From Prevotella sp. (GTDB lineage: Bacteria > Bacteroidota > Bacteroidia > Bacteroidales > Bacteroidaceae): a DNA stretch of 64,000 nt. Of the stretch, positions 1,942-60,718 are shown piece by piece. Position numbers and translations under genes: made by a program. The DNA lies in NCBI GenBank assembly GCA_017471245.1, contig JAFUVB010000034.1, forward strand, positions 1-64,000, given 5' to 3'. The notes under the pieces are model-generated. The model was not told the DNA's origin. It worked only from the letters and a program-made list of their open reading frames with translations, and did not search any database. How positions within the stretch are numbered: position 1 is the stretch's first letter; every line of letters starts with the position of its first letter.

Positions 1942-2156
1942 AAGCGTGATAATTAATAAAGAAGGTCGTACCGATGATGTGATGAAACTCCGAGTGTACA
2001 AGATTTGAGAGCTCTCCGTCTTTGTAATCCACCGGCTTTACAGCTTAGTCCTCACGGTTTTATGTGGCCCGCCATTAACAAGAGAAGTCTTCTCGGTTTT
2101 CGTTATTATTTTGATGAGTATCCCGATCTAACCGATACGACCTGTATTTCTATGTG
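1942..2156 (-). other. Long 5' leader of ribE, function unknown
   Basis: About 215 bases separate the putative ribE transcription start from its ATG, unusually long for this window. On the transcribed strand the leader contains GAGAAG-A-CTTCTC and a perfect GAGAGCTCTC palindrome (2007-2016). Conserved RFN-element segments are not recognisable and no convincing coding frame was found on either strand. It may hold a cis-regulatory RNA of another type or simply be spacer. Confidence 0.35.
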
Positions 2157-12105: not shown

Positions 12106-12171
12106 ATGCGAAAACCAACATTTTTTCGGAGGCGATAGTGTCAAAATCACCAAAACCAATTCTTGATTCCA

Positions 12172-12300
12172 TCAAAAACCTACGCTTTCATCTGTCAAAA
12201 CCTATGCTTTTAGCCTTTAAAAACATACGCTTTCATCTGTCAAAACCTATGCTTTTAGCCGTCAAAACATACGTTTTTAGCTGTTAAAACCTATGCAATC
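12172..12300 (+). repeat. 22-bp tandem array, core CCTATGCTTTT (locus 1 of 3)
   Basis: Six units of 22-23 bp, of the type TCAAAACCTATGCTTTTAGC, begin at 12172, 12195, 12218, 12240, 12262 and 12284. Copies differ by a few substitutions (for example CATACG for CCTATG), so the array is diverged rather than freshly amplified. It ends 68 bases before the promoter of the DUF3078 gene. Arrays with the same core and period occur at 38627-38714 and, inverted, at 60531-60640. Confidence 0.85.
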
Positions 12301-38315: not shown

Positions 38316-38513
38316 ATGTGTCATCTGCTGCGTTACCTGCTGCGTCATCTGCTGCGTTTTTTCATTGACTATTGACCATTGACCGTTGAGAATTGACCAT
38401 TGACCGTTGAGGATTGACCATTGACCGTTGAGGATTGACCATTGACCATTGAGCATTGAACATTGGGAAATGCTCAGCAGGTAACGCAGCAGGTAACGCA
38501 GCGGGTAACACAT
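38316..38513. repeat. Inverted-repeat element with 12-bp arm units (copy 1)
   Basis: The left arm 38316-38356 is ATGTG plus three 12-mers (TCATCTGCTGCG, TTACCTGCTGCG, TCATCTGCTGCG). The right arm 38473-38513 is its inverted counterpart (TTACC[C/T]GCTG[C/A]G units in reverse, ending CACAT). Between the arms lies an array of 7-bp repeats. The same arms flank a different core at 59973-60329. Size, palindromic ends and lack of genes resemble a MITE or REPIN-like element, but no target-site duplication is obvious. Confidence 0.85.
38364..38468. repeat. Heptamer array, consensus ATTGACC, 15 units
   Basis: Fifteen 7-bp units run without a break. The order is ATTGACT, ATTGACC, ATTGACC, GTTGAGA, then two cycles of ATTGACC-ATTGACC-GTTGAGG, then a run of variants ending ATTGGGA. 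The higher-order period is 21 bp, two helical turns, placing each GTTGAG unit on the same face of the helix. It fills the interior of the inverted-repeat element. Confidence 0.9.
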
Positions 38514-38626: not shown

Positions 38627-38714
38627 TTAATACCTATGTTTTTGATGGTCAAAACCTATGCTTTTGATGGCTGAAACCTATGCTTTTGAAGGCTGAAACC
38701 TTAGTTTTCGCATT
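38627..38714 (+). repeat. 22-bp tandem array, core CCTATGCTTTT (locus 2 of 3)
   Basis: Four units with an exact 22-bp period begin at 38627, 38649, 38671 and 38693, of the type TCAAAACCTATGCTTTTGATGG. The array stops 6 bases from the nudix stop codon. Same core and period as the arrays at 12172 and 60531. Confidence 0.85.
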
Positions 38715-59972: not shown

Positions 59973-60329
59973 ATGTGTTACCCGCTGCGTAATCTGCTGC
60001 GTTACCTGCTGCGTATTTTCCTTGATCCATTTTTCCCCGAGTTGAAGGCGATAATTCAGTTTTTTTGATGGATTCAGGGTTTCGTAAAACTTGAAAAGTT
60101 CAGAGGTTGTTTTCAATGGGCATGCTTAATAGGCGAGGGAAGGTTGGCAATTGCCAAAGGAAAACGATCTATAGATTATGAAAGAAAACTCATTGGATTA
60201 TGGAAAAACACTCATTAGATAGTGGAAATACATTCATTTGATAATGGAAAACACTCATTAGATAATGGAAAAACGCAAAAGAAAAATACGCAGCAGGTAA
60301 CGCAGCAGATTACGCAGCAGGTAACACAT
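59973..60329. repeat. Inverted-repeat element with 12-bp arm units (copy 2)
   Basis: Arms of 44 bp at 59973-60016 and 60286-60329 are inverted copies differing at one base; with a short extension inside they reach about 50 bp. Each arm is ATGTG plus three 12-mers of type TTACCTGCTGCG. The core is 270 bases with an unrelated tandem repeat (60161-60269). The outside ends match the element at 38316-38513, but the core does not, so arms and cores have been recombined. Confidence 0.9.
60161..60269. repeat. About 22-bp tandem array, unit AAAACACTCATTAGATAATGGA
   Basis: Five units of 20-24 bp (60161, 60185, 60205, 60227, 60249), the inner three closest to consensus. It is inside the inverted-repeat element and unrelated in sequence to the CCTATGCTTTT arrays, though similar in period. 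Confidence 0.75.
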
Positions 60330-60413: not shown

Positions 60414-60524
60414 AATGACCGTTTACCATTGACCGTTTACCATTGAACATTGACCGTTTACCATTGAACATTGACCGCTTACCATTGACTATTGACCATT
60501 GAGCATGTTCATTGACCATTATTT
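60414..60524. repeat. Heptamer array, ATTGACC/GTTTACC units
   Basis: Sixteen near-contiguous 7-bp units (one has 6 bases). ATTGACC and GTTTACC alternate, with ATTGAAC, GCTTACC and ATTGACT variants. The same unit family is at 38364-38468, but here the array lies outside the inverted-repeat element, 84 bases after it. Confidence 0.85.
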
Positions 60525-60530
60525 AGTGTT

Positions 60531-60640
60531 AAAGCATAGGTTTTAAGGCTCAAAAACATAGATTTTGAGTAACGAGAGCATAGGTTTTGAGCAACGAGAG
60601 CATAGGTTTTGCGCGTTAAAAGTGTAGGTTTGAGCAGGAA
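60531..60640 (-). repeat. 22-bp tandem array, core CCTATGCTTTT, inverted (locus 3 of 3)
   Basis: Five units with an exact 22-bp period (60531, 60553, 60575, 60597, 60619), reading AGAGCATAGGTTTTGAGCAACG on the plus strand, the reverse complement of the core found at 12172 and 38627. It begins 6 bases after the heptamer array and ends about 80 bases before the promoter of the glucosaminidase gene. Confidence 0.87.
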
Positions 60641-60718
60641 GTGTATGTAGATTGAAAAATTAAAGCATCGGTATTGTGAAAAACTTCCTAATGCTGCATT
60701 TGTCTCGCCTTTATTTCG

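What the first reader, a model, noticed from the sequence alone, without database searches (positions are those of the whole stretch)
60531..60640. Dispersed 22-bp arrays with the same CCTATGCTTTT core at three loci, one inverted
Seen: arrays at 12172-12300, 38627-38714 and here share the core and an almost exact 22-bp period. All are intergenic; two end 70-80 bases before a gene promoter and one abuts a gene's 3' end. Inference: a genome-wide repeat family, possibly binding sites for a nucleoid or regulatory protein arranged on one helical face, or sites for an unknown mobile mechanism.
Basis: partly seen in the sequence, partly recalled or inferred. Interest (0 to 1): 0.8.

Follow-up and report, generated by a model that had tools for sequence, protein, structure and literature searches.

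The report
Phased 22-bp dyad arrays in Prevotella
The repeats are real and belong to a large, little-noticed family of intergenic DNA elements in Prevotella and relatives, each a short row of near-palindromic sites set almost always 22 bases apart, most likely landing sites for an unknown DNA-binding protein.

Summary
Confirmed: three window arrays of a 13-bp quasi-palindrome, AAASC-TAY-GSTTT, at a 22-bp pitch. The genome holds 467 core hits (up to 2 mismatches) against 13 for the reversed pattern. In a 454-kb sample, 27 of 27 arrays lie outside called genes. Units may be inverted, yet all 10 inversions keep centre-to-centre 22 or 44 bp. Spacer ends are pyrimidine-purine steps in 95% and 98% of 114 spacers. 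At two orthologous arrays, cores differ at 1 of 91 positions, spacers at 15 of 45. Unit number is species-typical: four in P. falsenii, often six here. The generic architecture occurs in 119 of 299 genomes of the genus, 7 of 30 genera of the family and one genome of another family, with differing core interiors. The closest known thing is PINSR, a 188-bp P. intermedia-group repeat: it very probably contains such an array, but its paper reported neither 22-bp units nor other clades. Most likely these are dispersed intergenic elements carrying a phased operator array for an unidentified symmetric DNA-binding protein. No protein was found. Predicted DNA curvature is strong; hairpin pairing is not favoured in this genome.

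The parts
12153..12299 (+). Array 1: about six 22-bp units (one 23-bp step) between CTP synthase (-) and a DUF3078 gene (+)
38630..38708 (+). Array 2: four units, 13 bp from the 3' end of a NUDIX gene, between convergent genes
60531..60631 (-). Array 3: five units; a further degenerate unit near 60661-60674; between a pyruvate phosphate dikinase-like gene and a glucosaminidase/LysM gene
38325..38509 (.). Companion module beside array 2: inverted triplets of a 12-mer (GTTACCTGCTGC / GCAGCAGGTAAC) enclosing a 7-bp/21-bp repeat array
59980..60325 (.). Companion module beside array 3: the same inverted 12-mer triplets enclosing another 22-bp repeat (TAGATAATGGAAAACACTCAT)
60416..60520 (+). Heptamer (CATTGAC-type) repeat array next to array 3

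Best explanation
Each array is the core of a dispersed, non-coding intergenic element (a PINSR-like superfamily). It is a row of four to six dyad sites, YR-AAA-S-N5-S-TTT-YR, whose centres sit 22 bp apart, close to two helical turns, so the sites face nearly one side of a strongly curved stretch. I think each site binds a symmetric dimer of an unidentified protein, and that neighbouring dimers touch and coat or wrap 90-130 bp of DNA, mainly behind genes and between convergent genes, as a nucleoid or topological boundary element. Shown: dyad, pitch, YR steps, core constraint at two loci, position bias here, array-level two-fold bias, genus-wide spread. Inferred: the protein, its cooperation and the role. 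Elements spread and homogenise within lineages, which would explain the lineage-specific core interiors.
For: Pitch kept through unit inversions: 10 of 10. Spacer ends YR in 95%/98% of 114 spacers here and 100%/98% of 44 in Cattle_2_mag_37, using all four YR steps, so a shape or class rule rather than a fixed sequence. Between-array spacer identity is low (3.80 of 9) while cores stay near-consensus. Orthologous arrays: core 1/91, spacer 15/45, p=1e-7 (two locus pairs only, seven of their eight units counted). Left spacers pyrimidine-rich and right spacers purine-rich: Wilcoxon p=0.005 here (n=22), 0.011 in Cattle_2_mag_37 (n=14). Mean predicted bend 78-95 degrees against 33-34 for shuffles. 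All 27 sampled arrays intergenic. Architecture in 119/299 genomes of the genus.
Against: No protein found; neighbours of arrays in genomes with few arrays are varied. At the window's NUDIX locus an array was seen in 1 of 30 loci, the window genome's own (30 best matches, from 113 genomes with a match), so positions turn over, though some are shared. Core interiors differ widely between lineages and, in P. intermedia-like G107, within one genome, which is odd for one binding protein. In PINSR-type arrays the interior changes as fast as the spacer (28/105 against 19/99). The bend model peaks at a 21-bp pitch, not 22. The YR rule is weaker in the pooled other species (56%/57% of 138), and the two-fold bias is not significant there (p=0.06).
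Confidence: 0.45

Rival explanations
1. Purely selfish or neutral dispersed repeat: a non-autonomous element amplified per lineage, with no host function; the structure reflects what its unknown copying enzyme needs.
For: 28 of 31 P. falsenii arrays could be aligned as copies, nearly all sharing roughly 190-200 bp; lineage-specific cores; patchy distribution; 3'-end and convergent bias fits tolerance by the host; a flank motif lies 23 bp from the edge of 9 arrays in 4 species, pointing at the array.
Against: In the window genome spacers are randomised while cores and YR steps persist, so old copies look constrained. Y1 transposase was not found in 13 of 21 array-rich genomes, some of them incomplete. 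No empty site or target duplication was shown; none was searched for systematically.
Confidence: 0.27
2. Intrinsically curved DNA: phased A-tracts about every 11 bp bend the DNA for HU, gyrase or polymerase; the exact core matters little.
For: Predicted bend far above shuffles in all four species groups; AAA/TTT phase with its flanking S is what recurs across genera, by construction of the pattern, while interiors vary; YR steps are flexible (recalled).
Against: The bend model prefers 21 bp; most core-interior positions are about as conserved as the A-tracts in this genome.
Confidence: 0.15
3. RNA or cruciform hairpins: units pair with each other in transcripts or single strands, like 3'-end stem-loops.
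For: Some of 24 arrays fold far better than shuffles; in G107 units 1 and 3 are complementary beyond permutation (0 of 2000), and P. falsenii shows weaker excesses (p=0.003 and 0.024).
Against: In the window genome unit-unit complementarity is not above expectation (p=0.998). Pairing combinations at spacer ends are avoided here (C..G 0 of 109, A..T 2 of 111) and A..T in P. falsenii, though not significantly in Cattle_2_mag_37. Several arrays do not fold better than shuffles. Arrays sit in every gene context. The G107 pattern may be element subfamilies by descent.
Confidence: 0.08
4. Ordinary minisatellite grown by slippage.
For: Some arrays here hold near-identical spacers (12% of within-array pairs at 8/9 or more, against 1.4% between arrays).
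Against: In Cattle_2_mag_37/G062 no within-array spacer pair is that alike (0.000 against 0.013), yet 20 of 23 arrays have four units.
Confidence: 0.05

Closest known systems
[quoted passage not shown]
   Same: Intergenic, 177-184 copies, judged non-coding; P. falsenii JCM 15124 is PINSR-positive in that paper and most of its arrays here sit in a shared element of roughly 190-200 bp; a G107 array lies downstream of a tryptophanase-like gene, where the paper places PINSR in P. intermedia.
   Different: The paper's text reports no 22-bp units and found no PINSR in other clades by PCR. Window arrays lack the PINSR flanks by eye, and arrays of this genome often have six units; the architecture is genus- and family-wide.
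REP/BIME elements of Enterobacteria (recalled)
   Same: Palindromic units, clusters, intergenic, 3'-end and convergent bias, mosaic neighbours.
   Different: Strict 22-bp pitch, 13-bp core, no link to a Y1/RAYT transposase; gyrase binding untested.
Iteron or parC-type centromere arrays (recalled)
   Same: Phased repeated sites for a dimeric protein.
   Different: Hundreds of sites scattered over the genome, not one locus.
ERIC, BOX, NEMIS/Correia repeats (recalled)
   Same: Short dispersed intergenic repeats.
   Different: Those are described by hairpins or terminal inverted repeats; here hairpins are not favoured in the window genome.

Membership tests
PINSR | Found in P. falsenii JCM 15124 as a roughly 188-bp intergenic element | tested here: met
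   28 of 31 P. falsenii arrays aligned on their fourth unit; nearly all share conserved sequence over roughly 190-200 bp, one is truncated
PINSR | Copy downstream of tnaA in P. intermedia | tested here: met
   Four units about 280 bp downstream of the tryptophanase-like gene of G107; the P. falsenii homologue (L186) showed none downstream. G107 is unnamed, its identity is inferred from two replicons of 1.97 and 0.71 Mb
PINSR | Match to the published 188-bp consensus | not testable with these tools
   Consensus is only in a figure; supplements not available
PINSR | PINSR flanking sequence around the window arrays | tested here: not met
   Window and other G000 arrays lack it by eye; relatives by architecture, not PINSR copies
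REP/RAYT system | Cognate Y1 transposase present | tested here: not met
   PF01797 in 8 of 21 array-rich genomes and 9 of 20 comparison genomes, 0 in G562; 9 of those 20 carry at least one generic array match
REP/RAYT system | Conserved foot tetranucleotide (recalled) | not tested
   No scan made
MITE | Terminal inverted repeats and target-site duplication | tested here: inconclusive
   Companion 12-mer modules beside 7 sampled arrays mostly have inverted ends; no target duplication or empty site was searched for systematically
Hairpin RNA element | Complementary pairing between units beyond expectation | tested here: not met
   p=0.998 in the window genome; also not in H. saccharolytica (p=0.77) or P. 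illustrans (p=0.36); in Cattle_2_mag_37/G062 mean pairing p=0.26 but exact pairs p=0.042; excess in G107 and, weaker, P. falsenii

The most novel reading that the evidence does not exclude
Bacteroidaceae carry an unrecognised chromosome-wide DNA-binding system: a symmetric protein reads half-sites by shape (YR step plus A-tract) and assembles a two-fold symmetric complex on 4-6 sites per element at gene 3' ends, its specificity diverging with the lineage-specific core interior.
Probability: 0.3. Interest if true: 0.85.

Novelty: new variant of a known kind. Interest (0 to 1): 0.6.

Why it matters
Prevotella and relatives are major members of rumen and gut communities, yet their chromosome organisation is little studied (my knowledge). 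A family of tens to nearly two hundred elements per genome, with precise 22-bp geometry and lineage-specific cores, gives a direct handle for finding a nucleoid or transcription-boundary protein, and re-reads PINSR as one branch of a much wider class.

Tried and rejected
RAYT/Y1 transposase as the spreading enzyme: no association; the comparison set proved unclean, since 9 of 20 genomes carry arrays with other cores. Finding the binding protein next to arrays in genomes with few arrays: neighbours are varied. Recurrent orthologous neighbours: 12 of 86 reciprocal-best pairs were array-adjacent in both species (no formal test); a wider listing gave 34 cross-species pairs from 480 neighbour records, some of them the same locus twice (no null). 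Strand polarity of PINSR along the G107 chromosome looked striking in a listing but was a listing artefact: evenly spaced stretches show both strands. Array-level hairpins: not supported in this genome; a first test mixed orientations and is superseded. Orthologues of the ruminicola locus by DNA search: matches elsewhere, none that I recognised as the orthologous array. A looser AAA/TTT-only pattern over the order matched 47 of 295 genomes, mostly AT-rich noise with similar control counts. Rfam at gathering threshold: only a 6S-like RNA elsewhere in the window. Papers: searches listed nothing that I recognised as describing the 22-bp units. PMC5771137 was seen by passages only; apart from PMC4755523 the other listed papers were seen as listings only.

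The reversed-pattern control is not a pure null: arrays with AAAA/TTTT also match it (G000: 9 against 111), and a few genomes match the control alone (G007, G318, G069, G214).

Full report
Observation. The unit is a 13-bp quasi-palindrome, AAACCTATGCTTT, whose generalised form is AAASC-TAY-GSTTT. The window lies in a 3.73-Mb, 114-contig genome with 467 core hits at up to two mismatches, against 13 for the reversed pattern, and 239 paired hits at 22 bp (up to three mismatches) against none.

Anatomy. In 454 kb of this genome (the window plus 20 stretches chosen on contigs with core hits), same-strand neighbours within 200 bp were 22 bp apart in 79 of 88 cases. Ten neighbours were in opposite orientation and every one kept a centre-to-centre distance of 22 or 44 bp. 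Dyad centre spacing is therefore the constant. An inversion about the dyad axis by template switching would also keep the centre, so this is not by itself proof of selection. Of 27 arrays, none overlapped a called gene by more than 20 bp; of 91 arrays from named relatives, two did (where chaining at 21-23 bp was imposed). Gene calls come from my own hexamer caller.

The 22-bp logo. A-tracts and most of the core interior are near-invariant; the S positions vary. The spacer middle carries little information here, but its ends are pyrimidine-purine steps in 95% and 98% of 114 spacers, 100% and 98% of 44 in Cattle_2_mag_37, 91% and 94% of 88 in P. falsenii, and 56% and 57% of 138 in the other species pooled. 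All four YR steps occur. Across a spacer the pairing combinations C..G (0 of 109) and A..T (2 of 111) are avoided here, A..T also in P. falsenii, neither significantly in Cattle_2_mag_37. Small sets from further genomes show the same tendency (47 spacers from other Prevotella, 74% and 81%; 33 from other genera or families, 39% and 39%, or 91% and 88% if a YR step directly at the A-tract is allowed, where I reckon chance at about 50%).

Array level. Unit number is species-typical: four in 24 of 31 P. falsenii arrays and 14 of 15 of Cattle_2_mag_37; six in 20 of 43 distinct arrays here. Spacers left of centre are pyrimidine-rich and those right of centre purine-rich, an orientation-free sign of a two-fold axis (Wilcoxon p=0.005 here, 0.011 in Cattle_2_mag_37; 24 to 0 in P. 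falsenii, whose copies are not independent; p=0.06 in others). A wedge model predicts a mean bend of 78-95 degrees over about 92 bp against 33-34 for shuffles; the model's optimum is 21 bp, not 22.

Constraint. Two orthologous array pairs (P. ruminicola with bin.77, four units; RUG14568 with UBA2809, three of four units counted) have 1 change in 91 core positions and 15 in 45 spacer positions, p=1e-7. Against this, four P. falsenii/G107 pairs show the core interior changing as fast as spacers (28/105 against 19/99) while A-tracts are untouched (0/90): interiors look swapped as blocks. In 36 G107 copies with four in-register units (of 40 found in the sampled loci), units 2 and 3 always differ in interior type, and unit 1 pairs with one of them at 11 or more of 13 positions in 35 (type read from its listing). 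I cannot explain this; a few subfamilies by descent would suffice.

Spread. The Prevotella-type core pair (up to two mismatches) is in 90 of 398 genomes of the genus. The generic three-unit form AAAS-N5-STTT, exact, is in 119 of 299 (68 of 131 of good quality), in 23 of 251 genomes and 7 of 30 genera of the family, and in 3 of 295 across the order, one of them in another family. Core interiors differ between lineages in the listed matches.

Position. Arrays here sit nearer 3' ends than starts, and convergent gaps are enriched (10/25 against 10/89, p=0.002; pooled other species 11/42 against 10/101, p=0.019; P. falsenii 3 of 19, no excess). In G107, 14 of 37 unit hits lie between convergent genes and 36 of 37 outside called genes. 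The array beside the window's NUDIX gene was seen at none of 29 other loci of that gene. Some positions are shared: an array lies on the same side of a homologue (87%) of array 1's neighbour in G107, and 12 of 86 reciprocal-best pairs are array-adjacent in both species. Positions turn over but not wholly.

Relation to PINSR. Naito et al. (PMC4755523, section 3.4 read) describe a 188-bp intergenic repeat with 177-184 copies, PCR-positive in P. falsenii and present downstream of tnaA in P. intermedia. Of 31 P. falsenii arrays, 28 align as copies, nearly all sharing roughly 190-200 bp. G107, whose two-replicon layout suggests P. intermedia, has an array downstream of its tryptophanase-like gene; the P. 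falsenii homologue showed none. PINSR is thus very probably one lineage's amplified form of this class. The paper calls PINSR distinct from MITEs and leaves its function open.

Companions. In the 454-kb sample all 13 GCAGCAGGTAAC clusters lie within 600 bp of an array, mostly as inverted triplets enclosing other repeats; 6 of 11 CATTGAC clusters do too. A TGAWNATCAGYNNNTTA motif (up to two mismatches) is 3.2 times denser in non-coding DNA near arrays than elsewhere, and lies 23 bp from the edge of 9 arrays in 4 species, pointing at the array. The arrays are part of a mosaic.

Mechanism. I favour a phased operator array for a symmetric protein. Selfish repeat, curvature alone and hairpins are rivals. 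The identity of the protein, binding and role are inference.

Noticed in passing
window 38325-38509 and 59980-60325; L042, L043, L046, L049, L052: Inverted triplets of a 12-mer (GTTACCTGCTGC / GCAGCAGGTAAC) enclose heptamer arrays or other repeats; all 13 exact 12-mer clusters in the sample lie within 600 bp of a 22-bp array, so the two may be modules of one mosaic element.
   Followed up: partly
window 38363-38465, 60416-60520: Heptamer arrays (CATTGAC-type) near two of the three arrays; 6 of 11 clusters in the sample are within 600 bp of an array.
   Followed up: partly
window 60172-60272: A different 22-bp repeat (TAGATAATGGAAAACACTCAT) inside a 12-mer-bounded module.
   Followed up: no
window 1958-2142: 6S-like Bacteroidales-1 RNA (Rfam RF01693).
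   Followed up: no
L248-L263, L185, L189, L192 (G107 PINSR copies): In 36 copies units 2 and 3 always differ in interior type while unit 1 largely complements one of them; interiors look swapped as blocks relative to P. falsenii.
   Followed up: partly
L260 +17138 and L145 -3703: Units 1-3 of a PINSR copy appear inverted in place between complementary units, with flanks kept.
   Followed up: no
G007, G318, G069, G214: These genomes match only the reversed control pattern (AAA-N9-TTT form), perhaps another variant of the 22-bp architecture.
   Followed up: no
L057 4896-5041 and L058 2316-2394: Two arrays share both flanks but have different unit numbers, suggesting that unit number can change after duplication.
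   Followed up: no
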